Source: Bacteroidales bacterium
GTDB lineage: Bacteria > Bacteroidota > Bacteroidia > Bacteroidales > Tenuifilaceae
Assembly: GCA_003818205.1 (NCBI GenBank)
Contig: RPRQ01000010.1
Span: forward strand, 1-64,000
Reading direction: 5' to 3'
Length of the DNA stretch: 64,000 nucleotides
In this document: in pieces, positions 23,384-39,424 of the stretch
Layout: each line of letters opens with the position of its first letter
Numbering within the stretch: position 1 is the first letter of the stretch
Notes under the pieces: generated by a model
The model's input: the letters and a program-made list of their open reading frames with translations, nothing else
The model's database searches: none
Told to the model about the DNA's origin: nothing
Program-made: the position numbers and the translations under genes

Positions 23384-23423
23384 TAAAAAACATTGCAGAG
23401 CCCTATAATAGCGGCTCTGCAAT
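23384..23423 (-). terminator. Intrinsic terminator at the end of the PUL (after nagB-lmbE)
   Basis: Minus strand: ATTGCAGAGCC, 10-base loop, GGCTCTGCAAT (perfect 11-bp stem), then GTTTTTT. It lies about 35 bases beyond the stop of the NagB-LmbE gene and closes the polysaccharide-utilisation transcript. Confidence 0.9.
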
Positions 23424-23458: not shown

Positions 23459-25399
23459 CTATTCAATGTTCATTTTTACAAAAACCTCTATTGCTTCATA
23501 TTCGGCCATGCCGAGTTTGTTGTATATAACGGCAGTGTTTTTATTCCTCTCCTCGGTACGCTCCCAAAACTCACGCTCATCGAGGCCAGGGAAAAGCGCT
23601 CTGTCCTTCTGCGTTTGATGTTTGAAAATTGCCCTACGTTTCTTTATCAGCTCCTCGGGGCTGATGGGCACAGCCATTTCGGCTTCTGCCACATCCCACT
23701 CCTGCCATGAGCCACGGTATAGCCAAACCCAGCAGTTCTTGAACCAATCATCATTTTTTACCACTTCGAGGGCTTGGCTAATTGCCGTTAGGCAGATTCG
23801 ATGCGTACCATGAGGGTCAGATAAATCGCCAGCTGCGAAAATCTGATGGGGTTTAACCCTTCGCATGGCATCAATCACCAATTCAACATCGGCGGGCGAT
23901 AGTGAGTTTTTGCGTATTGTCCCTGTTTTGTAGAATGGCATATCCATAAATTGGATATGCTCCTCCTTAATCCCAATGAATCGACATGCTGCTTTGGATT
24001 CACCCTGCCTGATTAAGGCTTTTATCTTTTGAATCTCGGGGTTATCGATTTGCCCTGGTTTCTTGGTTGCTAGGAAGTTGATTACCTGGCTGTACCATCT
24101 CCCCGATTGCTCGGCATTTTCTAGAAAGGCTTCATTGTACATGTTGATAAAATCGGCATATCGGATTACATCCTCATCGCTAACGGAGATATTCCCGTTG
24201 GTTTGGTAAGCCACATGAACATCGTTGCCCTGCTCCGCTAATCGGAAAAGCGTTCCTCCCATCGATATTACATCATCGTCGGGGTGAGGGCTGAAAACCA
24301 ATACCCGCTTGGGGAATGGGTTAGCCCTCTCGGGACGATTGGAGTCATCGGCGTTGGGTTTACCACCTGGCCAACCGGTTATGGTATGCTGCATCTGGTT
24401 GAATACCTTGATGTTTAGCATGTAGGCGGGCCCAAAATTTGCCAAAAGATCGCTCATCCCATTATCGTTGTAGTCGCGGTCGGTTAGCTTAAGGATTGGC
24501 TTTTCGAGCTGTTGGCAAAGCCATACCACAGCCCTTTTTATCAGGGGCTCTGTCCAAACGCATGAGCTGACAAGCCAAGGGGTTTTCTCTCTGGTTAGGC
24601 TAGCTGCCGCAGCAGGATCTACTATAAACTCCGCATCGGGATGGTTTTGCAGAAACGATGAGGGCACCGAATCGGTAACCGGACCTTCGATGGCTTCGCG
24701 TACGATATCCGCTTTCTTTTCTCCCCAGGCCATTAATATAATTCGTTGGGCTTTCATAATGGGGTCAACGCCCATGGTTATGGCTCGACGGGGAACATTC
24801 TCCTCGGCAAAGAAGTCCGATGCGGCGTCGGCAATGGTCAGGTGATCGAGGGTGATGAGTCGGGTGGGGGAGTTGATATCCGATCCAGGCTCGTTAAAAC
24901 CGATGTGCCCAGTACGGCCAATGCCGAGTATCTGGATGTCGAGACCACCTAGGCTGTTCATCTTCTCCTCGTAGCTAGAGCAGAAATCATAGACCTTTTC
25001 GATGGGTAAAGTGCCATCGGGGATATTAATATTCTCTGGTAGTATGTCGATATGGTTGAACAGATGTTCGTGCATAAAATGCCAGTAGCTCTGAATATGT
25101 TCTTTAGGAATAGGATAATACTCATCGAGGTTAAAGGTTACTACGTTTTTGAAGCTTAATCCCTCTTCCTTATGCATTCTTACAAGTTCCCTGTAAACGC
25201 CTACAGGGCTTGATCCTGTTGCCAACCCAAGAATACAAAGTTCATTTCGGCTAGCCTTCCCCTTAATCAGATTGGCTATTTCGGTGGCAACCCAGGTTGA
25301 AGCGGTTTTCGAATCGTTAAATATTGTAGTGAAAATTTTCTCGTAACGCCTTTTCATCTTCTCGCGTACATCCAGCTTGGTGTTTCTAAGTCTAGGCAT
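23459..25399 (-). CDS. nagB: NagB-LmbE fusion: GlcN-6-P deaminase-like + PIG-L deacetylase
   Basis: 646 residues from the ATG at 25399 (MPRLRNTKLD). An upstream ATG in frame at 25450 would add 17 residues made of low-complexity intergenic sequence and is less likely. The N-terminal half is NagB-like, the enzyme turning GlcN-6-P into Fru-6-P and ammonia: Asp92 (NLDEYYPI), His165 and Glu170 (GHIGFNEP) are kept, but the position of E. coli Asp141 is Thr163 (GIGRTGH). The C-terminal half (about 365-646) is an LmbE/PIG-L zinc deacetylase with HPDDD at 372 and DPHGTH later. Last gene of the utilisation locus; a strong terminator follows. Confidence 0.92.
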   Translation of the reverse strand: MPRLRNTKLDVREKMKRRYEKIFTTIFNDSKTASTWVATEIANLIKGKASRNELCILGLATGSSPVGVYRELVRMHKEEGLSFKNVVTFNLDEYYPIPKEHIQSYWHFMHEHLFNHIDILPENINIPDGTLPIEKVYDFCSSYEEKMNSLGGLDIQILGIGRTGHIGFNEPGSDINSPTRLITLDHLTIADAASDFFAEENVPRRAITMGVDPIMKAQRIILMAWGEKKADIVREAIEGPVTDSVPSSFLQNHPDAEFIVDPAAAASLTREKTPWLVSSCVWTEPLIKRAVVWLCQQLEKPILKLTDRDYNDNGMSDLLANFGPAYMLNIKVFNQMQHTITGWPGGKPNADDSNRPERANPFPKRVLVFSPHPDDDVISMGGTLFRLAEQGNDVHVAYQTNGNISVSDEDVIRYADFINMYNEAFLENAEQSGRWYSQVINFLATKKPGQIDNPEIQKIKALIRQGESKAACRFIGIKEEHIQFMDMPFYKTGTIRKNSLSPADVELVIDAMRRVKPHQIFAAGDLSDPHGTHRICLTAISQALEVVKNDDWFKNCWVWLYRGSWQEWDVAEAEMAVPISPEELIKKRRAIFKHQTQKDRALFPGLDEREFWERTEERNKNTAVIYNKLGMAEYEAIEVFVKMNIE

Positions 25400-25474
25400 G
25401 TGTTTATCGTTGTTTGTTATTTGTTGTCTGTTATCTGTTGTCACTTTCATAATTCATCTCTCACTTCTCACTTC

Positions 25475-26545
25475 TCACCTCTCCTCCAGCAGCACCTTAA
25501 CCTTGGTCGAATCCTCTTCGAACTGAGCCCATTCCCAGAAAACTACACCTTTTGAGGGCTTTTCTAGGGCATACCTCATATTCATTTTGAACTCCTCGGG
25601 GCTTAGGATCCCTTCGCGGTAGCAACTATTCACCTCAATGCTCGGTATTATCTGACCGGGAGCAAGCGAGTCGAAATCCTTTACCACCGATGCGACCCAT
25701 TCGGGTTCACGGTAGAGCATCCACGAGTAGCACATGGGCGATATGTAATCGACTAGCTTCGATAGCTCCTTAATATCCTGACCTGCTAGGTAGTAACGGG
25801 CATTGCTGTAATCGGACTTTCTCCAGGGGACTGCATGGAGGTTCAGCTTGATGTCGGGGTTCAGCTCACGGGCTAAAGCTGATAAACTTTGAACCATTGA
25901 GGTTATTTTAAAACTTTTAAACTCAGCCCACGATTCGCTTTTAGCTAGCCATTGGTTCTTCGAATAGGTTGATGTAAAGGTATCGGGTATTGCAACCCCT
26001 TTCTCCTTCGTGAAATCTGCTTGGCAGCTGTCGCAGTAGCAACCGTGAAGTATCGAATCGGTAGGGGTTGATGGTTTTACCATCTCCCAGTAAAGAAAAT
26101 CTCTTACGAAATCGATGCTAATTCCATCGGGATTTGTGGTGGTAATAAGATTTCGTAAATCATCTAAGACCTGTTGCTGATATCTATCTCTTGATGGGCA
26201 TACGAACTCGACCCAATCCTGTTTAGCCTTTGTGCCTCTATTTGTTACTGCGTAGTTCGATGAGTCCTTAGCCAGCGCTTCGGGGTTGAAGAATACGGGG
26301 AATATGACGAAGACCTTAACCCGATTCTCCTTCGCCAAGCGACGGAATTCATTATCAGCCGCCATTTTTTTGCTTACAAAAGCGGTATTGATTCCACCCT
26401 TATGCCATGTTGCGAATAGCTCGGGGTAGCTGCCCTTGTAATCGTAGATTTTTGTACCGATTATGGCATCGTTGGGTTTGCTGCATGAGGCAGCGATTAG
26501 GGCAACAAGGCTTAATACTAGATTTCGGTTATAGTGAGGTTGCAT
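25475..26545 (-). CDS. Glycosidase-like (GHL10-type) lipoprotein
   Basis: 356 residues. The signal peptide ends in a lipobox (LIAASC, Cys at 21), so a surface or periplasmic lipoprotein is likely. The body looks like a TIM barrel: YDYKGSYPELFATWHKGGIN, then VKVFVIFPVFF, PDGISIDFVRDFLYWE (a D-G-I-S-I-D strand as in GH-like barrels), and a late VDYISPMCYSWM and SKGVVFWEWAQF. This resembles the putative glycoside hydrolase (GHL10/DUF4015-like) group. A CYCDSC motif near residue 175 might bind metal or form disulfides. It stands 75 bases before the NagB-LmbE start in the glucosamine locus. Confidence 0.65.
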   Translation of the reverse strand: MQPHYNRNLVLSLVALIAASCSKPNDAIIGTKIYDYKGSYPELFATWHKGGINTAFVSKKMAADNEFRRLAKENRVKVFVIFPVFFNPEALAKDSSNYAVTNRGTKAKQDWVEFVCPSRDRYQQQVLDDLRNLITTTNPDGISIDFVRDFLYWEMVKPSTPTDSILHGCYCDSCQADFTKEKGVAIPDTFTSTYSKNQWLAKSESWAEFKSFKITSMVQSLSALARELNPDIKLNLHAVPWRKSDYSNARYYLAGQDIKELSKLVDYISPMCYSWMLYREPEWVASVVKDFDSLAPGQIIPSIEVNSCYREGILSPEEFKMNMRYALEKPSKGVVFWEWAQFEEDSTKVKVLLEER

Positions 26546-26659
26546 GATCTGTTTTATATAGGTGTTGTTAATAATGGGTTGTTTAGTGTTATAAAAGTTT
26601 TGTTTGGTTATGTTGGTAATGGAATAGTGGGGTTCTCATAAACAGTTATCTTTCAATGT

Positions 26660-26953
26660 CCTTTTATTTAGTTATTCGACAAAACTAGTGGGTAGTTGTA
26701 ATTCTACAATTGTAGGATTTTATCGGTGACCTCTTGAAAACCTTACACACTTTTTATTCATTGGCTTTCTTAATCCCAGAGGGATTATATGTCTATAGAA
26801 AATATCTATCCCTAGGAACATTCGACCCCCGCTGGGGTCGCACCATAAATGGGCATTTTTTCTATAAACATCCGACCCCTCTGGGGTCAATATTGGAGCA
26901 AAACCAAATTATCTTCCACAACTTTTGTCGAATAACCTTTTATTTAGTTATTC
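26660..26953. repeat. Structured intergenic element with terminal repeats and hairpin array
   Basis: The 441-base gap 26546-26986 holds no convincing gene. Identical 18-mers CCTTTTATTTAGTTATTC lie at 26660-26677 and 26936-26953. A 14-base perfect inverted repeat (GTTATTCGACAAAA at 26671-26684, its complement at 26923-26936) overlaps them. Inside are three short hairpins: AATCCC-AGA-GGGATT (26772-26786), CGACCCC-CGCT-GGGGTCG (26823-26840) and GACCCC-TCT-GGGGTC (26874-26888), and an inverted pair ATGTCTATAGAAAA / ATGTTTATAGAAAA. Confidence 0.6.
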
Positions 26954-26986
26954 AAAACATATATTGAATTATAGTTACGATCAACA

Positions 26987-27886
26987 TTACCTTGGCGGAA
27001 ATACATCTATCACAGTAAAATCGACCCAGAATAGCGATGATGTATTGCTAACCCTGCTGATAATAGAGTCGCCAATGGTTTTTGATGGGTTTTCGTAATT
27101 ACCCCACCAGCTTTTATCGGGGCCATAGCCATACTGAAATCCAACCTTTGCGGGTTTAAAGGCATCGCCCCACGCTTTAAACTCATCGACCATGGCTTTT
27201 AGCGACGTAAACTGCTGGCTATCGTCAACAAAAACAATCCCATCCCTAGCATGGGGCGGCATTTTTTCGATTAGCCAATGCTTGAGGAATAGCTTATACT
27301 GCGGATGATATTCGCGAGCAATGGTAAGCCATTTGTTGGCCTCCTCGTCAGTTACAGCATTGCCATCGGGCTGGGTGTATGATTTGTACCACTCCACATC
27401 AACGCCTACGCCAATAATACACTTGTGCTTGCTATACTTTTTGAGCATGGTATGAATCAGCTCCTCCACCGATGCCATACCCGGTTCAATTTGTAGCCAA
27501 ACCCTTACCCCATTCTGGTCGAACAGGTTAAAGGTCTCCTCGTTTTGGTCTGCCGATGAACCGCTAATATATTGCGAAGTATTTGTAATGGGGAAGTTTA
27601 AGCGGCAACCCTTTTCGTTGAGCGTACCCACAATCCATACGCATTCAGGTTGAGCCCCAGTAAAATTCGATGCCATGCGCTGCCCCACCGATAGCCAGTA
27701 CTCCCTGCCAGGGTTATACTCAGGGCCGTAGGCTGAGTACCTAAATCCTGCACCTAGGGTTGGGTCAACAATGGTATCGTAATCGGTTGCATTGCTATTC
27801 TTAACAACTTCATCCTTGGTGCATTTGCATGAGGTTAAAACAGCAGCAAGAATAAATACCTTTAAGATATGGGAATAAATTTTCAT
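26987..27886 (-). CDS. Lipoprotein with GH18-like D-x-E motif
   Basis: 299 residues; lipobox at LTSC (Cys20). No family was firmly recognised. The middle reads as alternating strands and helices compatible with a TIM barrel: GVRVWLQIEPG, then CIIGVGVDVEWYKSY, then KLFLKHWLIEKM, DGIVFVDDSQQF and AKVGFQYGYGPDKSWW. GVDVEW (Asp163, Glu165) is reminiscent of the end of the GH18 D-x-x-D-x-D-x-E motif, and a lectin-like or inactive GH18 is possible. The context (SusCD, exo-glucosaminidase, NagB) supports action on an amino-sugar glycan. A hairpin separates it from the upstream PKD lipoprotein gene. Confidence 0.5.
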   Translation of the reverse strand: MKIYSHILKVFILAAVLTSCKCTKDEVVKNSNATDYDTIVDPTLGAGFRYSAYGPEYNPGREYWLSVGQRMASNFTGAQPECVWIVGTLNEKGCRLNFPITNTSQYISGSSADQNEETFNLFDQNGVRVWLQIEPGMASVEELIHTMLKKYSKHKCIIGVGVDVEWYKSYTQPDGNAVTDEEANKWLTIAREYHPQYKLFLKHWLIEKMPPHARDGIVFVDDSQQFTSLKAMVDEFKAWGDAFKPAKVGFQYGYGPDKSWWGNYENPSKTIGDSIISRVSNTSSLFWVDFTVIDVFPPR

Positions 27887-27905
27887 GTTAATTTCTTTAT
27901 AAAAT

Positions 27906-27940
27906 GGGCATCCTACTATAAATATAGGATTTGGATGCCC
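27906..27940 (-). terminator. Hairpin between PUL genes (possible attenuator)
   Basis: Minus strand: GGGCATCC (27940-27933), loop with an inner ATCCTA/TAGGAT alternative stem, GGATGCCC (27913-27906), then ATTTT. It lies between the PKD lipoprotein and the GH18-like gene and could lower transcription of the downstream genes or protect the upstream mRNA end. Confidence 0.6.
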
Positions 27941-27993
27941 CTTTTGGTTTAAATGATGAACGGTTTAAGGTGTTTCTGCTATTAATATTTAAT

Positions 27994-28911
27994 CTATCGA
28001 GTTACTTTTTTTACCAATCGCAAATAACCCCATTCAGTTTTAGTTGTACCTGAAACTGTAAAATCGGCTGGTAATGAAGCATCGTAGCGCAACCAGAGAG
28101 TATTAGGTGTTATTTCAAGAATTTGATATTCATGTGTGCCGTTTGCTATACCAATCCAACCATTATTTGTAATTCTTAAAACCCAGGCTGTATCGGCACC
28201 CGTTCCTAGTTTTTCAGTTTCCCAGCTGCTCTCAGGGGCAGTATATTCAAGAGCTACATCGGCATATTCTGCTTGTGTTTGACCTCTTAATTCATTAGCC
28301 CAAGCCCAGCTGTAAAGAAAATCACCATTGCTATTATTAATGTAATCAAATTTTCTGTTGATTTTAAATGAGTATTCATCATCATAACATCCCATACCAT
28401 CCATTTCATTGTCACCTGATTCCCACCATGTGACATCAATAGGGTCGAAATATGTACTTGGATCTTCTGGTCCTCCACAAGCAAAAGCTCCAGCCGTATG
28501 ATCCCATACCCAAACAGCAGAACTTTGATTATTCAAGGAACTATAACCACAAATGACTTTGTTCACATAGTTGTAAACATCAGGATTACCAATAGTTGTT
28601 GTGATGGACTTGGTAACAACTGTTTGTCCTCCTTTACCCATGGCAATACACTTTACATTGTATGTATCGGCAATATCAAATGACATCTCTGTATTTTCTC
28701 CAACAGCTGTTTTTCCATTATCAAAATCCCAGTAGAATTCATACGCATTGTCAGCATTCGCAGTAAATTCAACGCTGTTTCCAGTGATAGTTGCTTGAAT
28801 TTCAACATTTGCAGGGGGGGTGCCAATACTTGGATCGGAATCTTCCTGTGTACAGGAAATCATCATAAGGGTAAGTACTCCCACAATTAAAAGGCTTATT
28901 GTTTTTTTCAT
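27994..28911 (-). CDS. PKD-domain surface lipoprotein (putative glycan binding)
   Basis: 305 residues; lipobox LMMISC (Cys20). About residues 45-110 form a PKD domain with the signature FYWDFDNGKTAVGEN; the rest (about 115-305) is a tryptophan-rich beta-sandwich-like domain (AVWVWDHTAGAFACGG; LYSWAWANELRG; TLWLRYDASLP) that ends in W-G-Y-L-R-L-V-K-K. It takes the place of SusE/SusF-type surface glycan-binding proteins just after SusD (30-base gap), so it probably binds the polysaccharide at the cell surface. The ligand cannot be read from sequence. Confidence 0.75.
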   Translation of the reverse strand: MKKTISLLIVGVLTLMMISCTQEDSDPSIGTPPANVEIQATITGNSVEFTANADNAYEFYWDFDNGKTAVGENTEMSFDIADTYNVKCIAMGKGGQTVVTKSITTTIGNPDVYNYVNKVICGYSSLNNQSSAVWVWDHTAGAFACGGPEDPSTYFDPIDVTWWESGDNEMDGMGCYDDEYSFKINRKFDYINNSNGDFLYSWAWANELRGQTQAEYADVALEYTAPESSWETEKLGTGADTAWVLRITNNGWIGIANGTHEYQILEITPNTLWLRYDASLPADFTVSGTTKTEWGYLRLVKKVTR

Positions 28912-28941
28912 TTTTTAATCATTTAAGGGTTTAAAATGATA

Positions 28942-30417
28942 TTAAAATCCACCAAGGTCAACTTGAGCCTGAGGTATTGGGAAGTAGTGATTATTCGCTT
29001 CGGTGTAACCAAATTGACCAAGAACTTCAACACCACGTCCTGAACGAATTATATCCCATAGTGCATGACCCTCCATTGCAAGTTCGCATCTGCGTTCATG
29101 GAAAATAGCCTTAACTGGATCTGCTAAGTATGGCGATGCCCCTAAACCGACTCTATCACGAACTTCGGTTAAATATGATTGCCAATCACCTCCTGTATGA
29201 TAAGCAGCTTCGGCTGCCCAAAGCAACACCTCAGCATAGCGTATTACAATCCAGTTATTTGGATCATCACTCATATTTTCGGCTTGTAAGCTAAAAGGTA
29301 GTTGATACTTTTGGTTACACATCTTGTCGATATTGCTAGCCCAATTAGTTGAGTTATCGGCAACCACCTCATCAGCGGTTCCTGGCCATAGTATTTCACC
29401 ATCAGTAATAATTGTTGCATCTCGTCGAGGATCACCAGCCTCGTATTCATCGTATAAATTTTGGTTTGGTAGATTGAAACCCCAACCAGCATCTAAATTA
29501 CGGCTACGCATAAAAATTGAATATACATTGCCAGTATTCTGATCACCCCAGTTTGAGCCACCGGGTATATTCCCGAATTGAATTTCGAATACGCTTTCGG
29601 GTCCATTTTCGTGAGGGTAAGCCCAATTGTTGGCATAGTCTGATTCTAGATGGTATTGTGGTATGGCTGGAGCGGTAGGATTTATTATCTCTTCAGCTAT
29701 GGCGAGAGCTTCGCTCCATTTTTCTTGATAAATATAGGCTTTACAAAGCATCGCATTTGCAGCACCTTTTGTTGCTCTACCCATATCTTCTGTAGTATAT
29801 TCACTCTTTTCGGGAAGAATTAAAGCTGCATCTTTGAAATCTTGTTCGATTTGAGCATAAATAGCAGAGATTTCTGCAAGGGGTTGTTTGTATTCGCTGG
29901 GGCTAAGTACTTTTGTAACAAGCGGGACTTTCCCATAAGTTCTAACCAATTCGAAGTAAAAGTAGCCACGAATAAATTTAGCTTCAGCAATAATCCTTTC
30001 TTTCATATCAGCATCAATGAGATTATCGCTCATTTTGGTAACACCATCAATAAGTTTATTGCATCTGCCAACTCCTATAAAATAGTTTTTGTACGGGTTG
30101 ATTAACCCCTCGTTATTTGCATTGTATTGGAAACGTAAAAGAGGTTCAATCCATGCATTATCTCCTGCCCCTTCTCCTCCTTTATGAGCATCATGACCAA
30201 GAATGTCTCCAAGCCAAAATTGAAGGAAGTTAGAGTCGTCCCAGCCTAAAACACTATAACAACCAGTTAGTGCAAGCTGGGCGTTTTTTTCACTATTAAA
30301 GTATAGCTCTTCGTCAACTTGTGGAATGGTTGGATCAAGGAATTTCTCTGTGCAAGCAACTATTCCAAGTAAACTTGCAAAAAGTGTAATCTGTAAAAGG
30401 ATTTTTTTAGTTTTCAT
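28942..30417 (-). CDS. susD: SusD/RagB-family outer-membrane lipoprotein
   Basis: 491 residues from ATG 30417 (MKTKKILLQ); an ATG at 30429 that shares its A with the SusC stop (TAATG) would add four residues and could give translational coupling. Lipobox LLGIVAC. The N-terminal TPR-like region (ALTGCYSVLG) and the terminal SusD domain (DRVGLGASPYL, FHERRCELAMEGHALWDIIRSG, NHYFPIPQAQVDLG) are clearly present. SusD proteins form the lid of the SusC transporter and bind oligosaccharides outside the cell. It follows susC directly. Confidence 0.97.
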   Translation of the reverse strand: MKTKKILLQITLFASLLGIVACTEKFLDPTIPQVDEELYFNSEKNAQLALTGCYSVLGWDDSNFLQFWLGDILGHDAHKGGEGAGDNAWIEPLLRFQYNANNEGLINPYKNYFIGVGRCNKLIDGVTKMSDNLIDADMKERIIAEAKFIRGYFYFELVRTYGKVPLVTKVLSPSEYKQPLAEISAIYAQIEQDFKDAALILPEKSEYTTEDMGRATKGAANAMLCKAYIYQEKWSEALAIAEEIINPTAPAIPQYHLESDYANNWAYPHENGPESVFEIQFGNIPGGSNWGDQNTGNVYSIFMRSRNLDAGWGFNLPNQNLYDEYEAGDPRRDATIITDGEILWPGTADEVVADNSTNWASNIDKMCNQKYQLPFSLQAENMSDDPNNWIVIRYAEVLLWAAEAAYHTGGDWQSYLTEVRDRVGLGASPYLADPVKAIFHERRCELAMEGHALWDIIRSGRGVEVLGQFGYTEANNHYFPIPQAQVDLGGF

Positions 30418-30428
30418 GGTTTGTTGCA

Positions 30429-33400: not shown

Positions 33401-33485
33401 CAGCTGAAACAAGGCAGACGAATAGGATAGCTACTAGCCATCTTATGCCCGTTACAGATTTTGCATTGGTTGCGTGATGTTTCAT
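30429..33485 (-). CDS. susC: SusC/RagA TonB-linked outer-membrane transporter
   Basis: 1018 residues: signal peptide (cleavage near VFAQE), CarboxypepD-regulatory-like domain (about 36-110: VTGTVTDQTGAPIPGANILI), TonB box region, plug (DELVVVGYGVQRKSDLTGSV; DPVYVVDGLQVDDISFLNP; ILKDASACAIYGSRGSNGVV, the SusC signature) and a large barrel. It imports oligosaccharides with SusD, energised by TonB. In the unit it follows two ROK genes (34 bases before) and precedes susD with a one-base overlap. Confidence 0.98.
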   Translation of the reverse strand: MKHHATNAKSVTGIRWLVAILFVCLVSAGQVFAQELTVTGTVTDQTGAPIPGANILIKGTTTGAVSDANGKYSIKADGNATLTISFVGFINQEVNIESRSIIDFKLEQESLSVDELVVVGYGVQRKSDLTGSVVSVKAEEIEKSKSSNLGQILQGRASGVSVTTNTGTPGSTPSIRIRGFSTVNNSDPVYVVDGLQVDDISFLNPSDIESMEILKDASACAIYGSRGSNGVVLITTKRGSKGKMQISIDATQGVSKVWRKMNMLNASQWGMLNNEAKINAGLSPSASLVDYQSLGEGTNWFDEITQVGSNKNINIGISGASENTNYFMSIGNTKEKGIVKKSDYQRTSLRLNSTSNLKKWLTIGENLTLEKDITHRVNEEDEWNAVIIEALAIDPVTAVRDTDGNFIGSEFVDMRNPVAQIDRTHNDDITTIIVGNVFAEIKPFKSLVFKSNLGIDYNDNNSNNFSPAYEIFSEPGQAEPSVSRNYAQSKTWSLYNTLTFSKEYGDHSISAMLGNEAMNKYEEYFGTSVTNLLSNNPDQAFIDNGNASAAISNGLMGELLMLSYFGRVNYSYANKYLVTASIRRDGASNFGINNRWGNFPSFSLGWNLHKESFMSNLSFINQLKLRGGYGVNGNNKIGNYPYISLASKGYGYVFGNTVLDGSAFPSGKNQDIKWESNSSTNIGFDLGLLDNSINMTFDYYVKNTTGMLVEKPTPSHVGLETQAWVNAGKVKNNGIDFDFSYKKKTGSLSYQIGFNLNYNQNELVTLDGAKTLWGTGLRDGDFITYAEVGQPLIQFRGYKTDGLFQTWDEVNAHVDSNGDLLQPNAAPGDIKYKVDPNDPDKLYLGSIGCPLPKITYGISGKLEYKMFDLSFQFQGVYGNDIFNGTMVYSERPDASHNMDAQMLNRWTGEGTTNDAHNPRMNAADANNNWFSDRFVEDGSYVRLKDFQIGFTLPNSLATKIKIQSLRFFIGGTNLLTFTKYSGFDPDVSYGVYGNLDYGLDRGRYPQSRTFFTGISLTF

Positions 33486-33519
33486 AGTTGAATTAAGGTT
33501 TAGTGTTATTGTTTAAGGG

Positions 33520-34404
33520 TTATTTTCTGAGAATTTTATTCTGGGCATCGTGGTATAGCGCTGCTGCGCCCAATACGGCTATATCGGGGTTTTCTGAGAC
33601 TTCAATTTTGAGAGTTTCGAGGGCGTGCTTGAAGTTGTAGGTGTTTACCTTCTCCCACATGGCCGTTTTAAAGAATGGGAACGCTTTGGCAAGGCTACCG
33701 CCCAAAACGATATAGTCGGGGTCAATGGCGTATAGTATGGCTTTAATGGCTGATCCCAAATCGAATCCGAATTGTTCAAAAACAGCTAAGGCAATCTTAT
33801 CGCCTTCGGTTGCCCGTTGGTAGAAAACATCGGCCTTAATGCCATACTTCTCATCGAAGTACCCCTCTGAGCAGTAGTACTCAATGTCGTAGTCGCGGTA
33901 GGGCATTGAGCCGAATTCGCCTGCGCCGCAGTGACTCCCAGAGTATAAGTGGCCGTTAAAGATTATGCCAGCGCCGAACCCTACGCCGATGATTACTCCA
34001 ACCACGTTGTTGTAGTCCTTGGCCTGCCCAAAGTACTTCTCGCCAATGGCAAAGCAGTTGGCATCGTTATTAACATAGACCTTAACATCCAAGCGGTTTT
34101 CGAGTATCTCCCGTAGGTGAACTTTTCTCCACGATGGGATGTTGGCCACCCTATACACAATGCCCTGCTTAACGTCAACCACGCTTGGTACGCCAATGCC
34201 AATACCCACCACATCCTTATCGAACATCTCCTTGATGACATTGAGAACCTCTTTGATTACTGTATCCTCCGATTCCTTATTGTTGATTTTCCGGGTGATG
34301 GTTTTTTCGAGTTTCATCCCTCTAACCTTGCCAACCGTTATGGTACGGCCGTTTAGGTCGATGCCAAGGATGAGTTCATTCCCTGTAGTTTCATCGTAGA
34401 TCAT
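33520..34404 (-). CDS. ROK-family protein, divergent copy
   Basis: 294 residues of the ROK (repressor, ORF, kinase) family. The phosphate-binding loop reads GIDLNGRTITVGKV, with Asn in place of the second Gly of the usual D-x-G-G-T-K. NDANCFAIGE holds the catalytic Asp, and VIIGVGFGAGIIFNG is the ATP site. The typical zinc motif C-x-C-G-x-x-G-C is missing; instead GEFGSMPYRDYDIEYYC. No helix-turn-helix precedes the domain, so it is a kinase-type or ligand-sensing member, not a NagC-type repressor. It overlaps the first ROK gene by 4 bases and is its paralogue. Sugar phosphorylation in the glucosamine pathway is the likely role, but activity is uncertain. Confidence 0.85.
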   Translation of the reverse strand: MIYDETTGNELILGIDLNGRTITVGKVRGMKLEKTITRKINNKESEDTVIKEVLNVIKEMFDKDVVGIGIGVPSVVDVKQGIVYRVANIPSWRKVHLREILENRLDVKVYVNNDANCFAIGEKYFGQAKDYNNVVGVIIGVGFGAGIIFNGHLYSGSHCGAGEFGSMPYRDYDIEYYCSEGYFDEKYGIKADVFYQRATEGDKIALAVFEQFGFDLGSAIKAILYAIDPDYIVLGGSLAKAFPFFKTAMWEKVNTYNFKHALETLKIEVSENPDIAVLGAAALYHDAQNKILRK

Positions 34405-35285
34405 GCTGATACGGTTTTAGGGTTATTGTTGGTAACATCAAAAAACATAGCTGCTGCGCCAAGTATCGATAGGTTTTCGAGCGAGGAGTATAAAACTTTA
34501 AAATTCTTCAATGAGTTGGGGTAGGGGAAAGTATTTATTTCCTCAAGCATCGATTTTTCGAAGTATTTATGCGATTTTGCGATTGACCCACCCAGTATTA
34601 CCATTTCGGGGTCAACTGAGAATAGAATGGTTTTAATTGCATTCCCGAGATGTTTGCCGAATTCATGGTAAGCTTTTAGCGCCATTGGGTCGTTGTTCTG
34701 TGCGGCCTCCGAGATTTTCTCTCCATTCTGATGGAATATGGTTTTAAAGAACTTACCGCTACAGTAATCCTCATATATTCCATCGAGGTATGGTATGCTT
34801 CCGAATTCACCGGAGCCGCAGTTGGCATCTAATATCAGTTTCCCTCGGTTAATAATGCTTCCGCCCATGCCTGTACCGAGCGTTATGCCCACAAAGTTCT
34901 CGTAGCTACGTCCCTGCCCGTAAAGCCTTTCACCTATGGCGAAGCAGTTGCAGTCGTTATCGAGGAATACTGGAATGTGAAAATGCTCTTCGAGTAATTT
35001 CTTCAGATGAACCTCTTTCCACGAAGGGATGTTCTGAACATCGTAAACGATTCCATGCTTACGATCAACGAGGCTCGGAATTCCAATGCCAATTCCCTTC
35101 GTTTCAGGCGAGAAAGCCTGCTCTACGGTTCTCTTAATCTCATCAACAACGATGTTGGCATCGTTTGCATCGAGGGGTACGCGATTATCGGCATACTTAA
35201 CGATTTTTGCATTCTCAACTAGCCCCGCACGAATATTTGTGGCTCCAAGATCAACCCCAATAACTATATCTTTTGAAATGTTCAT
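34401..35285 (-). CDS. ROK-family sugar kinase
   Basis: 294 residues. The P-loop GVDLGATNIRAG is close to the ROK consensus; NDCNCFAIGE carries the catalytic Asp; the ATP motif is GITLGTGMGGSIIN; VDPEMVILGGSIAKS is the C-terminal nucleotide-binding strand. Zn-site cysteines are mostly absent (GEFGSIPYLDGIYEDYC). Context makes glucosamine or GlcNAc kinase the best guess: it comes after the importer and upstream of a GlcN-6-P deaminase. It starts 11 bases after the importer stop and overlaps the second ROK gene by 4 bases (ATGA). The two proteins share length and layout, so they arose by tandem duplication. Confidence 0.88.
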   Translation of the reverse strand: MNISKDIVIGVDLGATNIRAGLVENAKIVKYADNRVPLDANDANIVVDEIKRTVEQAFSPETKGIGIGIPSLVDRKHGIVYDVQNIPSWKEVHLKKLLEEHFHIPVFLDNDCNCFAIGERLYGQGRSYENFVGITLGTGMGGSIINRGKLILDANCGSGEFGSIPYLDGIYEDYCSGKFFKTIFHQNGEKISEAAQNNDPMALKAYHEFGKHLGNAIKTILFSVDPEMVILGGSIAKSHKYFEKSMLEEINTFPYPNSLKNFKVLYSSLENLSILGAAAMFFDVTNNNPKTVSA

Positions 35286-35296
35286 AGAAAGAAAAA

Positions 35297-36547
35297 TTAC
35301 TCTTTTTGCGATTTAAGACTTATGGTTTTGTTGTTTACGATGGGTTTTGCCCAGAAACCGATGCTAAAGATGTACCCCAGCGTTACGTATAGTATTGTCA
35401 TGCTGAACCGTAGCCCGATTAGGTCGCTTAACCCACCAATTATCCATGGTACAATGGCTCCACCAATTATTGCTGTGCATAGCAGCCCCGAGAAAGCCCC
35501 ATGATGATTTTCTAGCGAGTTTAGCGCAAGCGAGAATATTACCGACCACATTACCGATAGGAAGAATCCGCATAGCGGAAAGGCTACTATTGAATAGCTG
35601 GCAGGTCCAAAAAGGCCAAATGACAAGCTGAGTATTGCTAGTGATGTAAAATAGATAAGCACTTTGCGGCTATCGATGAATTTTAGCAATAGTAACCCGA
35701 GTAAGCATCCTAGGGTTAGTAGCCCCCAGAAGCTCGAAACGGCATTTGCACCATCCTCCTGAGGGTTAAATCCGTGGTACTGCTCAAGGAATCGCGACAT
35801 CCAGTTGGCTATACCCTGCTCGGTTCCTACGTAAACGAAAATACCGATGATAAAGAGGATAACCACTCTCTTTTTGAGCAGCATGCCATAGACCGACGCT
35901 TTTTCAGCTTTTTCGTCATCCTTTAGTTCAATGCGTGGGAGTTTGGATATAAGAATAACGCCAACCATTGCTATGGCTATGGCGCAAAACACCCAGTAGA
36001 TCGACACCCAGGGTTGATTTGCAGGAACCATTCCCGAGAGGGTTTGGATAAGCGTACTGTCGGGAATAGGATTTTTTTGCAGTTCGGTTACCAGATAGGA
36101 GTATAGCTGAGGGCTTACAAATGAAGCCAATCCGAAAACTAGCTGGGCGAATACGGAGTTAAAGGCAAAATGCTCTTCCCCCCCGGCAGAGCGTAGCAAT
36201 GGGTTGATTACTACTTGTAGCATAGCCATACCAATCCCAATGGTGAACAGCGATGGAAGCGCAGTATGGTATGTGGGAATAAATGCAAACCAGAAAGCCC
36301 CTGCTGTGGCTAACATAAATGCCCAAGCCATTAGCGTTTTCGCTGAGTACCTTTCGGCCAAAACACCTGCAGGAATGGAAATAATATAGGCAAAGAAAAA
36401 GGCAAAGGGTAAAAACCCTGCTAATGAATTGCTGAGGTTAAAGCTCGATATAAACTCGGGGATAATCGGTCCAAGAATATTAGTTAATAGCGAGATTACA
36501 AAGAATATCAAGAAAATAAGAGCAACAATAAAATAGTTTCGCTTCAT
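35297..36547 (-). CDS. FucP-like MFS sugar:H+ symporter
   Basis: 416 residues from ATG 36547 (MKRNYFIVALIF); this start is 7 bases after the GH2 stop. An upstream in-frame ATG (36586) would run back into the GH2 gene and is less likely. Twelve hydrophobic segments are visible. The features FFFAYIISIPAGVLAERYSAK, IGIGMAMLQVVINPLLR and FNSVFAQLVFGLASFVSP fit the FucP/glucose-galactose transporter group (FHS family). It sits in the inner membrane and should import the monosaccharide freed by the GH2 enzyme, here perhaps glucosamine. Confidence 0.9.
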   Translation of the reverse strand: MKRNYFIVALIFLIFFVISLLTNILGPIIPEFISSFNLSNSLAGFLPFAFFFAYIISIPAGVLAERYSAKTLMAWAFMLATAGAFWFAFIPTYHTALPSLFTIGIGMAMLQVVINPLLRSAGGEEHFAFNSVFAQLVFGLASFVSPQLYSYLVTELQKNPIPDSTLIQTLSGMVPANQPWVSIYWVFCAIAIAMVGVILISKLPRIELKDDEKAEKASVYGMLLKKRVVILFIIGIFVYVGTEQGIANWMSRFLEQYHGFNPQEDGANAVSSFWGLLTLGCLLGLLLLKFIDSRKVLIYFTSLAILSLSFGLFGPASYSIVAFPLCGFFLSVMWSVIFSLALNSLENHHGAFSGLLCTAIIGGAIVPWIIGGLSDLIGLRFSMTILYVTLGYIFSIGFWAKPIVNNKTISLKSQKE

Positions 36548-36554
36548 GGTTTGG

Positions 36555-39176
36555 CTATTTTGAAATATTAATTCCGTCAAGTTCAAATGTTGGGGTCTGA
36601 CCCTCTAGGTTTTTTGTGTAAACCCATGCGCTAATGGTGCGCAATTCGCCAGGTAGTAGGCTGATGTAATTATCGTCCCAAAAAACTGGTAGAATTGTTT
36701 TGCCAGCTTGGCTCCCTTTAATGGCAAGCTCAAGGAAGAAGGCAATTTTCTCCGAACTATTTTTTAGGGTAACCGTAACTCGCTGCTTGTCGCCATCAAC
36801 CGAAAATTGTGCATTCGATTCCACTTTCACTTTTTCAAGGTCTCTTAACCCTCTCAGGTCTGCGAATTGGCTATTGGGGGTAACGAACCATGCTGTTTTT
36901 TTGTAATCAAGGATGTCATCTTGTGTTGATAACCAGTAAAAATTGGTTGCGATCAGCGATGAATCCTCTTGGTAAAGCCTTAGATCAACAAAGTATGCTG
37001 TGGTTAGATCTTTTAGCTCCGATAGGCCAAGTACTTCTTTCGATGTGTTTGATTCAATATCAATGGTTGATGAATTGCTAAAGATTAGCTTCGATTCGAG
37101 GTTAAAGACTTTTACCTCTGCTCGGAGTTTATTCTTTGGCTCTATTAAATCGGAGGAAACAAAAACCGTTTTACTGCCATAGTTGTATGAGATATTCAGC
37201 GGACGACATGCGCTTCGTGTCCCGTAGAACGCCCCGTTTGGCATTAGGTACCAATCGTATAGCTGCCAGTACATCTCGGGCCAAGCGGAGTTTAACATCC
37301 ATTGGACTACCCCTGTGGAGTTGAATTTGTTTGCGCTGAAAGCCTCGAACATGGGACGGATGGCCTCGTAGTTCGAAACTTGGCACATCTTAGCAAAATC
37401 TTTTATGTCCGATGACTCCCCATACCTATGATTAAAGGCGTTAAGAAATCTTTTTATGGAGTGAAACTCATTCCTGCCGCAATGGTAGTTCCATTCGCTA
37501 TTTGTTGGAGGCCAAAGTGAATCAGCAGGGAGCATTCTTTGCAGGCTTTCAAGGGGTGGAACCTGTGGCCCAGGGCCTGTTTCGGTGTTGAAACCGTATG
37601 CACCACCGTAATGGGTGTCAACATACCAGTAGTTCGGGGTTACGTAATCGTAAGGTCCACGCATCTTAACGCCTGTAGGTCCGCTAATTTTACTTGTATT
37701 GTTGAAAATGTCATCGGCATCGTAATATTTGCAGCTGGCAAGTATAGGGCGTGTGGGGTCAACCTTGTTAATAGCATTGTTAAGCATGGCTTCAAGTTCT
37801 GTAGGGGGGAGCTTATCGCTACCGTAAACCCATAGAAACACCGAAGGATGGTTCCTTAACCACATCACCTGATCGGCATACGATTGGGTGTGAAGGCTAA
37901 ACTCATTGGGGTTGATTGACATAAAATCGGTTTCGGGTCTTCCGCAGTAACCCTCCCATTCCCAATGGCAGCTCCAACCTAGCATCACAAGCATACCGTT
38001 CTCATCGGCATAATCGTAAAATTTTTCGCTGTTTCCCCAGAAGCCTTCGAGGCGAATGGTGTTCAAATTCGTGTGGCGAGCATATTCAACCTGCACCTTA
38101 ACTTTTTCATCGGTATCGGACAGGGTAAGGTCATCGACCCATCCTGCCCCTTTAATCAATACCTTTTTGCCATTTATTTTATAACCTCTATGTCCATCCC
38201 TATTAATGTACTGGCCTATGGTACGAATTCCGAAACGTATGGTTTTATGGTCGGTAATAAGGCCATCGACGCTAGCGCTTATATTTAGCGTGTAGAGTTC
38301 GGGTTTACCCATTCCGTTGGGCCACCATAGCCTCGCATCTTTTAGGTTGAGCGTTTCGAAATCATCGGGGTCAAAAACTCCTTCGATACAGCCATTCGCA
38401 TTGGCTTCAATCTCCTTTTCGATTCTCACCCCTTCAAAATCGGCTGTAATCTTTATCTTCTTCGATGATGCGGCGAAATTTTTAAGGTTAAACCCAATGC
38501 TGATTCTCGCTGATTTTAAGGTTGTTGTATCTACGTCGCTTCGGACATAAACATCGTTGAGCGATACAACCCCAGAGCGGATGATTTTAACACCTCTCCA
38601 GAGACCCATGTTCGCATCGGGGGCAGGTGGATTCCAATCCACAAAGCCAATGGTTAAATCCTGGGGTTGGGGAGGGAATACCTCTACGGCCAAGGCGTTT
38701 TTTGCCTTTAGTAAATTATTGTTGAGGGATATTTTAAAAATCCTAAAGGGGTTCTCAACGGTGTCGGCCTTTGCTATAAGAGTTCCGTTAAGCCAAATAT
38801 TAGCCCTGTAATTTAGACCTTCAAGAATCAATGTTTGATTGAATGCATCACCATAGCAATCCAATAAAAATTCCTTACGATACCACCATGATGTTTGAAA
38901 CCTTTCGGTATTTACTTTTTGGAGGTTGTTGCTAAAGTAGATGTCTTTATACTCTCCGGCATTTATCAATGCAGTGAACACGGTGGATGGTATATTACAG
39001 CTATACCATGCTTGGGTATTGTACTCAGGTTTTGAAATTACGCTTCCTGAAGTATTCGTTATTGAGGAGGATTGTAGGTTCCATCCGTTATTCAGGTTGC
39101 TTTCATCGTACAAGGTTTCTTTTTTTGAACAGGAAAGCAGAATGAAAGAGATTAAGATTACTGAGTTTATGCGCAT
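36555..39176 (-). CDS. GH2 lipoprotein, exo-beta-D-glucosaminidase-like
   Basis: About 873 residues. The start at 39176 (MRINSVILIS) gives a clean lipoprotein signal with lipobox FILLSC; longer in-frame starts exist up to 39212. Order: sugar-binding jelly roll (FQTSWWYRKEFLL; LNYRANIWLNG), Ig-like domain, TIM barrel (RLEGFWGNSEKFYDYADENG), C-terminal beta domains. The acid/base region reads WVYGSDKLPP: Ser-Asp instead of the Asn-Glu of most GH2 enzymes, a mark of the exo-beta-D-glucosaminidase (CsxA) group. The nucleophile is in FNTETGPGPQ. In the longest frame these are Asp466 and Glu544. It should release glucosamine from chitosan ends. First gene of the locus. Confidence 0.85.
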   Translation of the reverse strand: MRINSVILISFILLSCSKKETLYDESNLNNGWNLQSSSITNTSGSVISKPEYNTQAWYSCNIPSTVFTALINAGEYKDIYFSNNLQKVNTERFQTSWWYRKEFLLDCYGDAFNQTLILEGLNYRANIWLNGTLIAKADTVENPFRIFKISLNNNLLKAKNALAVEVFPPQPQDLTIGFVDWNPPAPDANMGLWRGVKIIRSGVVSLNDVYVRSDVDTTTLKSARISIGFNLKNFAASSKKIKITADFEGVRIEKEIEANANGCIEGVFDPDDFETLNLKDARLWWPNGMGKPELYTLNISASVDGLITDHKTIRFGIRTIGQYINRDGHRGYKINGKKVLIKGAGWVDDLTLSDTDEKVKVQVEYARHTNLNTIRLEGFWGNSEKFYDYADENGMLVMLGWSCHWEWEGYCGRPETDFMSINPNEFSLHTQSYADQVMWLRNHPSVFLWVYGSDKLPPTELEAMLNNAINKVDPTRPILASCKYYDADDIFNNTSKISGPTGVKMRGPYDYVTPNYWYVDTHYGGAYGFNTETGPGPQVPPLESLQRMLPADSLWPPTNSEWNYHCGRNEFHSIKRFLNAFNHRYGESSDIKDFAKMCQVSNYEAIRPMFEAFSANKFNSTGVVQWMLNSAWPEMYWQLYDWYLMPNGAFYGTRSACRPLNISYNYGSKTVFVSSDLIEPKNKLRAEVKVFNLESKLIFSNSSTIDIESNTSKEVLGLSELKDLTTAYFVDLRLYQEDSSLIATNFYWLSTQDDILDYKKTAWFVTPNSQFADLRGLRDLEKVKVESNAQFSVDGDKQRVTVTLKNSSEKIAFFLELAIKGSQAGKTILPVFWDDNYISLLPGELRTISAWVYTKNLEGQTPTFELDGINISK

Positions 39177-39300
39177 CATCTCGGTTTGGTTTTGGGTTTT
39201 GTATGAACCCAAAATACGCCCATCGGATTTTTAATTGCAAAGAAATGTACAGCAATTATAGCTGTTTATAGGTGGTTATGGTTTCTTTTTTGATGAGCAA

Positions 39301-39390: not shown

Positions 39391-39424
39391 AATAAGCGTG
39401 TGCAATATATTGCACACGCTTATT
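39391..39424. promoter_or_regulatory. 34-bp perfect palindrome, operator candidate, distal
   Basis: Each 17-base arm is AATAAGCGTGTGCAATA or its complement, with no mismatch and no loop; the core (39401-39414) is TGCAA-TATA-TTGCA. No T-run follows on either strand close by, so an operator is preferred over a terminator. Likely ligand: the LacI-type regulator encoded at 42152-43189. Confidence 0.6.

What the first reader, a model, noticed from the sequence alone, without database searches (positions are those of the whole stretch)
23459..39176. Glucosamine-polymer utilisation locus built around a Ser-Asp GH2 enzyme
Seen: one minus-strand series GH2 - FucP-like importer - two ROK - SusC - SusD - PKD lipoprotein - two glycosidase-like lipoproteins - NagB-LmbE, closed by a strong terminator. 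The GH2 acid/base motif is GSDKLPP, the Ser-Asp form known for exo-beta-D-glucosaminidases. Each step from surface binding to Fru-6-P has a candidate. Inference: chitosan or partly deacetylated chitin, or another GlcN-rich glycan, is the substrate.
Basis: partly seen in the sequence, partly recalled or inferred. Interest (0 to 1): 0.58.

Follow-up and report, generated by a model that had tools for sequence, protein, structure and literature searches.

The report
Glucosamine-polymer locus with unclassified barrel enzymes
A Bacteroidota gene cluster that probably feeds on glucosamine-rich polymers such as chitosan contains, besides a recognisable glucosamine-trimming enzyme, a barrel-shaped lipoprotein of a family that no searched library names, and relatives of it sit beside or fused to the same partner genes in several distant phyla.

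Summary
The gene series is real. The GH2 protein keeps the three CsxA active-site features (Ser-Asp, amino-binding Glu, nucleophile), carries Ig_GlcNase and falls with CsxA in a 100/100 tree branch apart from Asn-Glu (beta-mannosidase-like) rows. A glucosamine (GlcN) polymer as substrate is well supported by sequence; chitosan as the exact polymer is not shown. The more interesting part is the two 'glycosidase-like lipoproteins'. LP299 (26987-27886) belongs to a family without credible Pfam or NCBIfam match (80 members scanned), with relatives at 37-56% identity in many phyla, a confidently predicted (beta/alpha)8 barrel, and acidic strand-end residues identical in 80 of 80 rows. It is linked to the SD-type GH2, the same MFS importer, ROK kinases and LP356, to which it is fused in both orders. 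LP356 is a remote DUF4015/GHL barrel whose nearest structures (PgaB C-terminal domain, Cwp19, GH42) tie. The genome has no GH18 hit and no nagA over cut-off. A candidate LacI operator upstream of GH2 recurs at the matching place in the closest relative locus. Best reading: a GlcN-polymer utilisation locus whose chain-cutting step is done by one or two unclassified barrel enzymes. No activity is shown.

The parts
36555..39212 (-). GH2 lipoprotein, exo-beta-D-glucosaminidase type (GH2_16-like): SD acid/base, RLEG Glu, FNTE nucleophile, C-terminal Ig_GlcNase domain
35297..36586 (-). MFS importer of the GluP/FucP/NagP kind (below the NCBIfam cut-offs); 57-61% identical relatives in 9 of 80 LP299 loci
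34401..35285 (-). ROK sugar kinase 1 (GlcN or GlcNAc kinase inferred)
33520..34404 (-). ROK sugar kinase 2
30429..33485 (-). SusC-like TonB-dependent transporter
28942..30429 (-). SusD-like surface binding lipoprotein
27994..28911 (-). PKD lipoprotein (sub-threshold PKD hits), perhaps a surface glycan-binding protein
26987..27886 (-). LP299: lipoprotein with a (beta/alpha)8 barrel of an unclassified family; E134, D163, E165, D222, D257, D289 identical in 80 of 80 rows
25475..26545 (-). LP356: lipoprotein barrel, remote DUF4015/GHL10/GHL13 relative; nearest structures PgaB C-terminal domain, Cwp19 and GH42 (tied)
23459..25450 (-). NagB-LmbE fusion (glucosamine-6-phosphate deaminase-like plus PIG-L deacetylase domain)
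23393..23422 (-). Intrinsic terminator stem-loop closing the series
39399..39416 (.). Candidate LacI-family operator TGTGCAATATATTGCACA inside a 34-bp palindrome (39391-39424)
42152..43189 (-). LacI-family regulator, candidate repressor of the series
26546..26986 (.). Gap between LP299 and LP356 with a repeated MITE-like element

Best explanation
The series is a polysaccharide utilisation locus for a GlcN-containing polymer, most likely partly acetylated chitosan. SusC/SusD and perhaps the PKD lipoprotein capture and import chains (inferred from family). LP299 and LP356, both lipoprotein barrels, cut the polymer (inferred; a predicted barrel fold and, for LP299, invariant acidic strand ends are shown, hydrolysis is not). 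The GH2_16-type enzyme removes GlcN from non-reducing ends (active site shown by sequence, activity inferred). The MFS protein imports GlcN, a ROK kinase makes GlcN-6-phosphate, and the NagB half of NagB-LmbE makes fructose-6-phosphate; the PIG-L half may deacetylate residual GlcNAc or GlcNAc-6-phosphate, as the genome has no nagA over cut-off. A LacI-family repressor probably acts at the palindrome upstream of GH2.
For: GH2: CsxA is the top PDB match at 494 bits against 112 for the best beta-mannosidase; SD, E394 and E541 positions kept; a tree of 41 rows puts 22 SD rows, CsxA and the window among them, on one side of a 100/100 branch, with L122 as sister at 100/99; 20 of 20 SD loci in the tree carry Glu at the E394 place. 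Cassette: among 80 loci fetched by LP299, LP356 lies next to or fused with it in 18, GH2 is present in 12, the MFS in 9; all 11 of those GH2 proteins that reach the motif are SD, the 12th (L173) is cut short. L122 (Bacteroidales MAG) has ROK, ROK, MFS, GH2, LacI and LP299, LP356. Fusions: LP299-LP356 in 5 loci (one cut by a contig end), LP356-LP299 in 7. A GH9 gene directly precedes LP299 in L068, L161 and L178 and lies about 0.7 kb before it in L158, and GH9 is another family with exo-beta-D-glucosaminidases (PMC6566704, passages). In part of the Chloroflexota loci LP299 sits with GH4, YdjC, BadF-type kinase and LacI genes. Own genome: no GH18 match, no nagA over cut-off, one Glucosamine_iso over cut-off, this one. 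The operator candidate recurs in L122 in the GH2-LacI gap.
Against: No activity, binding or expression datum. All linkage is from sequence, mostly MAG contigs. LP299 has no detectable relation to GH18, DUF4015 or LP356 by profile comparison and its fold matches are many general barrels, so hydrolase activity is not proven. Of the 7 SD-type GH2 neighbourhoods among the 12 fetched without regard to LP299, only 1 (L068) has LP299, 3 the MFS and 2 an adjacent ROK. NagB is near LP299 in only 1 of 80 loci at E <= 1e-5, and NagB-LmbE is common in the phylum (56 of 148 genomes over cut-off), so its place here may be incidental. SusD and the PKD protein have no counterpart in the 80 loci. In the same genus 0 of 4 other genomes have LP299.
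Confidence: 0.6

Rival explanations
1. The polymer is a beta-1,6-linked, partly deacetylated bacterial exopolysaccharide (dPNAG type) scavenged from biofilms, with LP356 working like the GH153 domain of PgaB.
For: By VIA-align LP356's first match is PgaB's C-terminal domain, solved with GlcNAc and with GlcN (Z 26.6 and 26.5, rmsd 2.9 and 2.8, 302 and 301 aligned); one of 17 members hits the PgaB models weakly (7e-4) and 3 of 17 hit GHL13, best 9.3e-5. GH153 cleaves dPNAG to oligomers and needs deacetylated residues (PMC5933820, abstract and passages).
Against: Foldseek ranks Cwp19 first (1.5e-11) before PgaB (9.7e-11); Cwp19 (Z 25.9) and a GH42 enzyme (25.5) are close to 26.6, so the ranking cannot choose. 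By sequence DUF4015 is nearer (9 of 17 members, best 1.2e-6; hhalign 95.7%). GH2_16 and the GH9 partner point to beta-1,4 chitosan (PMC12243196 and PMC6566704, passages).
Confidence: 0.17
2. The substrate is mainly acetylated (chitin oligosaccharides or peptidoglycan fragments) and a deacetylation step comes before GH2, as in the Thermococcus chitin pathway.
For: The PIG-L half of NagB-LmbE has an intact PHPDD motif in 17 of the 17 family loci examined for it and in the window; part of the Chloroflexota LP299 loci carry YdjC-type genes; a deacetylase plus exo-GlcNase pathway is in print (title in the reference list of PMC6566704).
Against: No GH18 match in the genome; NagB-LmbE shows no signal sequence by eye, so it is probably cytoplasmic (inference); the Glu that binds a free amino group is kept in GH2.
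Confidence: 0.15
3. LP299 (and perhaps LP356) are not hydrolases but binding proteins, lytic transglycosylases or degenerate barrels that assist another enzyme.
For: LP299 has no sequence relation to any enzyme family tested; its best structural match by Z is Cwp19 (17.4), recalled to be a lytic transglycosylase.
Against: Eleven strand-end positions, six of them acidic, are identical in 80 of 80 rows, more typical of catalysis than of loose binding (inference).
Confidence: 0.2
4. The GH2 enzyme is a beta-mannosidase or another GH2 type and the GlcN reading is wrong.
For: PF18368 also occurs on GH2 proteins with the Asn-Glu motif, so the domain alone proves nothing.
Against: SD, Glu and nucleophile positions and the tree; the subfamily paper states that SD is strictly conserved in GH2_16 (PMC12243196, passage).
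Confidence: 0.05

Closest known systems
CsxA, exo-beta-D-glucosaminidase of Amycolatopsis orientalis (GH2, subfamily GH2_16)
   Same: SD acid/base pair, amino-binding Glu, nucleophile and homology over window residues 43-882; same tree branch
   Different: The window protein ends at 885 residues, CsxA (1032) has a further C-terminal part; the window enzyme is a lipoprotein in a SusC/SusD locus
Flavobacterium johnsoniae chitin utilisation locus (PMC5127042; title and start of abstract in the listing only)
   Same: A utilisation locus for an amino-sugar polymer in Bacteroidota
   Different: It is described for chitin; the window genome has no GH18 match and its recognised enzyme trims free GlcN
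PgaB C-terminal domain (GH153)
   Same: Barrel fold of LP356, rank 1 by Z but tied
   Different: No deacetylase domain fused; GHL13 cut-off not reached by any of 16 members scored singly
DUF4015 and GHL10, hypothetical glycosidase families
   Same: LP356 aligns with a 6-row DUF4015 set by profile (95.7%, E 9.7e-9); 1 of 16 members scored singly (L122) just passes the DUF4015 cut-off (28.3 of 27)
   Different: The window copy scores 16.2 of 27 bits and 15 of 16 members stay below every cut-off shown
GH18 (chitinases, endo-beta-N-acetylglucosaminidases)
   Same: LP299 has an Asp-x-Glu at the end of strand 4; Endo H and hevamine are among the Foldseek matches
   Different: The first two Asp of the GH18 motif are absent and profile comparison shows no relation (0.5%)

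Membership tests
GH2_16 (exo-beta-D-glucosaminidase subfamily) | SD in place of NE at the acid/base | tested here: met
   GSDKLPP aligned to CsxA GSDFAPD; criterion from PMC12243196, passage
GH2_16 (exo-beta-D-glucosaminidase subfamily) | Glu in place of the usual His, binding the amino group | tested here: met
   RLEG in both; role of E394 from PMC6566704, passage
GH2_16 (exo-beta-D-glucosaminidase subfamily) | Groups with CsxA rather than with beta-mannosidase-like GH2 | tested here: met
   100/100 branch of 22 SD rows including CsxA. CsxA is the only characterised row; the NE rows are uncharacterised, and no characterised beta-mannosidase or plant endo-beta-mannosidase was in the tree
GH2_16 (exo-beta-D-glucosaminidase subfamily) | Releases GlcN from chitosan | not testable with these tools
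   needs an enzyme assay
Polysaccharide utilisation locus | SusC/SusD pair with glycosidase genes on one strand | tested here: met
Polysaccharide utilisation locus | Substrate-dependent co-expression | not testable with these tools
   a LacI operator candidate is the only hint
GH18 (for LP299) | DxxDxDxE motif on strand 4 | tested here: not met
   GxGxDVEW instead, only D163 and E165
GH18 (for LP299) | Profile or sequence match | tested here: not met
   hhalign 0.5% against a 15-row GH18 set; GH18 not among the 12 families hit by any of 80 members at E <= 0.1
GH153 (for LP356) | Passes the GHL13 (PF14883) cut-off | tested here: not met
   14.6 of 27 bits for the window copy; best of the others 22.1 (L126)
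GH153 (for LP356) | Fold of the PgaB C-terminal domain | tested here: inconclusive
   rank 1 at Z 26.6 but tied with Cwp19 and near GH42; Foldseek puts Cwp19 first
GH153 (for LP356) | Cleaves deacetylated PNAG | not testable with these tools
   needs an assay
DUF4015 (for LP356) | Passes the PF13200 cut-off of 27 bits | tested here: inconclusive
   window copy 16.2, L122 28.3, the other 14 members scored singly below or not listed
NagB (glucosamine-6-phosphate deaminase) | Curated model match | tested here: met
   TIGR00502 268.7 bits over 236.9; NF002557 ('deaminase-like') 1054 over 384
NagB (glucosamine-6-phosphate deaminase) | Catalytic Asp141 (E. coli numbering, recalled) | tested here: not met
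   Thr in the window and in 28 of 30 family loci, Asn in 2; effect on activity unknown

The most novel reading that the evidence does not exclude
LP299 founds a new glycoside hydrolase family: a secreted, endo-acting enzyme for partly acetylated chitosan (or another GlcN polymer) that uses the D163/E165 pair, works as a pair with LP356 (or with GH9 in Ignavibacteria), and forms with GH2_16, the MFS importer and a ROK kinase a conserved glucosamine-polymer cassette carried across several phyla, mostly in uncultured bacteria.
Probability: 0.45. Interest if true: 0.72.

Novelty: new variant of a known kind. Interest (0 to 1): 0.6.

Why it matters
Chitosan and other GlcN polymers are abundant, but my searches (listings) showed no description of a Bacteroidota chitosan locus of this make-up. 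The locus offers a protein family without a name in the searched libraries, a predicted active site, two natural fusion orders with its partner and a concrete operator candidate, so its function can be tested with a few purified proteins. If active, LP299 would be a new enzyme family with possible use in chitosan processing or biofilm removal.

Tried and rejected
A single-sequence scan of genome contigs with LP299 found no relative; the scan with alignment A1 then found 170, so the first was a limit of its patterns. The phylum search with A1 reported 97 of 395 genomes, but among the rows shown nearly all match only the C-terminal part of the model (from about position 250 on), the tail of three rows; only the own genome, G271, G070 and G357 match the barrel, so I count 4 of 395 (the list was cut).

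LP299 as GH18: the GxGxDVEW block suggested it, but profile comparison shows nothing. LP299 and LP356 as relatives of each other: no (0.7%). LP356 as a plain GH153: not favoured over DUF4015; LP356 also aligns weakly with GH18 (76.5%, E 2.2e-5). PDB sequence searches with LP299 and LP356 gave only chance-level rows. Rfam over the window at gathering thresholds gave one tRNA only. A paper search on a NagB-LmbE fusion found 0 papers with 3 of 4 terms.

Rows dropped: one search left out six loci that are the window itself; the tree left out 12 loci that repeat genomes present as longer loci, and 11 of its 41 rows carry no label because my motif pattern did not match them. My first pattern for the E394 place missed several rows; a looser one finds Glu in 20 of 20 SD loci of the tree and Trp in 7 of 8 NE rows (L030 unmatched). 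My first NagB pattern matched 17 of 30 loci, a looser one all 30. The DUF4015 set has 6 rows, one below Pfam's cut-off. L165 was left out of the LP356 members scored singly (16 of 17).
Full report
What is there. The window lies in contig C37 of a 5.17-Mb draft genome, 98.98% complete. The order is probably Bacteroidales in GTDB terms: a same-order genome's contig (L056, 8,125 bases) has the same length and LP299 gene as a contig titled Bacteroidales (L168); this is an inference.

The GH2 enzyme. phmmer against PDB sequences gives CsxA at 494 bits and beta-mannosidases at 112 or less. The alignment keeps the Ser-Asp pair, the Glu of RLEG and the nucleophile Glu. Published criteria match: in GH2_16 the NE motif is replaced by a strictly conserved SD and the common His by Glu (PMC12243196, passages); E394 binds the amino group and Ser468 precedes the acid/base Asp469 in CsxA (PMC6566704, passages). 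Ig_GlcNase (PF18368) alone is not diagnostic: it passes the cut-off in 27 of 395 Bacteroidota genomes, but a good part of these GH2 proteins have Trp at the E394 place and, where my pattern caught the acid/base, Asn-Glu. The tree of 41 rows puts 22 SD rows, among them CsxA and the window, on one side of a 100/100 branch, apart from the 8 labelled NE rows; 11 rows had no label.

The two lipoproteins. LP299 has no family: in Pfam the 80 members gave 12 scattered families with one or two members each, best E 0.0057; in NCBIfam 0 families at E 0.01; the PDB profile search gave noise. Relatives were rare in the order (3 of 246 other genomes) and absent from the 4 other genomes of the genus, but the genome-contig scan with an alignment returned 170, best 80 kept, titled Chloroflexota, Acidobacteriota and Aminicenantes, Bacteroidota, Ignavibacteriota, Myxococcota and 'Deltaproteobacteria', KSB1, Planctomycetota and a few archaeal MAGs (MAG contamination is possible). 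AlphaFold2 with 80 sequences gives mean pLDDT 90.2, about 98 over most of the domain, and a (beta/alpha)8 barrel from about residue 45 to 297. E134, D163, E165, K202, H203, D222, Q251, Y254, D257, W287 and D289 are identical in 80 of 80 rows and lie at or just after the ends of strands 3 to 8. Structure search finds only general barrels: Foldseek best E 2.6e-5 (a GH2 barrel), a GH5 at 4.0e-5, Endo H at 2.0e-4; VIA-align best Cwp19 Z 17.4, rmsd 3.1, 230 aligned, then other barrels from 16 down. Profile comparison sees no link to GH18 or DUF4015 or LP356.

LP356 is also a barrel (pLDDT 85.0). It is a remote DUF4015/GHL relative: 9 of 17 members hit DUF4015 (best 1.2e-6), 4 GHL10, 4 GHL6, 3 GHL13 at E <= 0.1; of 16 members scored singly only L122 passes a cut-off, DUF4015 with 28.3 of 27 bits; hhalign against DUF4015 gives 95.7%. 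By VIA-align its best structures are PgaB's C-terminal domain (Z 26.6, rmsd 2.9, 302 aligned), Cwp19 (25.9) and GH42 (25.5), effectively tied; Foldseek puts Cwp19 first (1.5e-11) and PgaB next (9.7e-11).

The cassette. Among the 80 LP299 loci (all have LP299 by construction; many contigs short), tblastn at 1e-5 finds LP356 in 18, GH2 in 12, the MFS in 9 (57-61% identity), NagB in 1, SusC in 1, SusD and PKD in 0. Of the 18, five are LP299-LP356 fusions in Acidobacteriota (L108, L109, L115, L153, and L113 cut by its contig), seven are fusions in the reverse order (L156, L160, L162-L166) and six are neighbours. Two fusion orders argue that the two domains act together. A further eight Chloroflexota loci carry a cluster of LP356-like proteins near LP299; five of these eight match the LP356 profile above hmmsearch's inclusion line (best 7.3e-8 with Z set to 1000), three do not. 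A GH9 gene stands directly before LP299 in L161 and L178 and L068 and about 0.7 kb before it in L158; only the L068 copy was scanned against Pfam, the others were found with it by tblastn. Another Chloroflexota group has LP299 with GH4 (7 loci), YdjC (8), BadF-type kinase (8 loci, one of them KSB1) and LacI genes in varying sets (the L121 copies named by Pfam). The nearest match to the window is L122: ROK, ROK, MFS, GH2, LacI on one strand and LP299, LP356 on the other. Seen from the GH2 side the link is weaker: of 12 neighbourhoods fetched from the best rows, 7 are SD type (L063-L068, L073); one has LP299, three the MFS, two an adjacent ROK.

Regulation. A perfect 34-bp palindrome lies upstream of GH2 at 39391-39424, with TGTGCAATATATTGCACA at its centre. 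The exact pattern occurs once in 64 kb; with up to 3 mismatches there are 3 sites against 0.50 expected, 1 of 100 shuffles reaching 3. A 14-base core was found in 2 of 223 loci: L004, which is the window itself, and L122, in the GH2-LacI gap. The window and L122 LacI proteins share the stretch SASTVSRAL in the DNA-binding part and are 36% identical. The palindrome could also serve as a terminator: one search lists it as terminator-like on the plus strand.

Downstream steps. A ROK kinase of B. theta acts on GlcN and GlcNAc in vitro and another ROK gave a growth gain on GlcN (PMC11300592, passages). The own genome has no nagA over cut-off (best 21.1 bits against 225.65), one Glucosamine_iso protein over cut-off, the window's, and no GH18 match. 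Long ORFs at C59 and C139 match the NagB-LmbE model below its cut-off in the own genome. NagB-LmbE is common in the phylum, 56 of 148 over cut-off, and has Thr in place of the E. coli Asp141 (numbering recalled) in 28 of 30 loci and Asn in 2.

The gap. 26546-26986 contains a repeat with 42 matches in the genome, the window copy and fragments included. Five other copies read have inverted ends TTATTCGACAAAA...TTTTGTCGAATAA and lengths of 264, 264, 273, 387 and 273, the mark of a small non-autonomous transposable element. In L122, L126 and L172 LP299 and LP356 are within a few bases of each other, so the element probably inserted between them.

Known against new. As a system it works like a PUL with a GH2_16 exo-enzyme, and each of these is known. 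What I did not find in print under the searches (listings only, apart from the passages cited) is this cassette or a function for LP299. That is a limit of the library and terms, not proof of absence.

Noticed in passing
window 26546-26986: MITE-like repeat (inverted ends TTATTCGACAAAA, 264-387 bp in five other copies read, 42 matches in the genome including this one) between LP299 and LP356; several matches lie at contig ends, so it probably breaks the assembly.
   Followed up: partly
L019, L020, L027, L028, L029, L072 (Asn-Glu and Trp seen); L018, L023, L025, L026, L069, L070, L074 (Trp seen): The Pfam domain Ig_GlcNase also sits on GH2 proteins with a beta-mannosidase-like active site, so annotation by this domain alone would mislabel them.
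   Followed up: yes
window 23459-25450; L224-L253: The NagB half of the NagB-LmbE fusion has Thr (28 of 30 loci) or Asn (2 of 30) at the place of E. coli Asp141 (recalled); whether the fusion deaminates, deacetylates or both seems open.
   Followed up: partly
L116-L119, L121, L123, L125: Chloroflexota gene groups of LP299 with GH4, YdjC-type, BadF-type kinase and LacI genes in varying sets, resembling a chitobiose pathway.
   Followed up: partly
L156, L160, L162-L166 against L108, L109, L115, L153: LP299 and LP356 are fused in both orders in different lineages.
   Followed up: partly
window 43438-45557: A minus-strand pair of an RloB-family protein (64 bits) and an AAA_21 ATPase (108 bits), possibly a phage-defence pair.
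   Followed up: partly
window 17544-20840 and 20916-23324: A Sortilin-Vps10/BNR repeat protein and a second TonB-dependent receptor follow the terminator on the same strand, probably a separate unit.
   Followed up: partly
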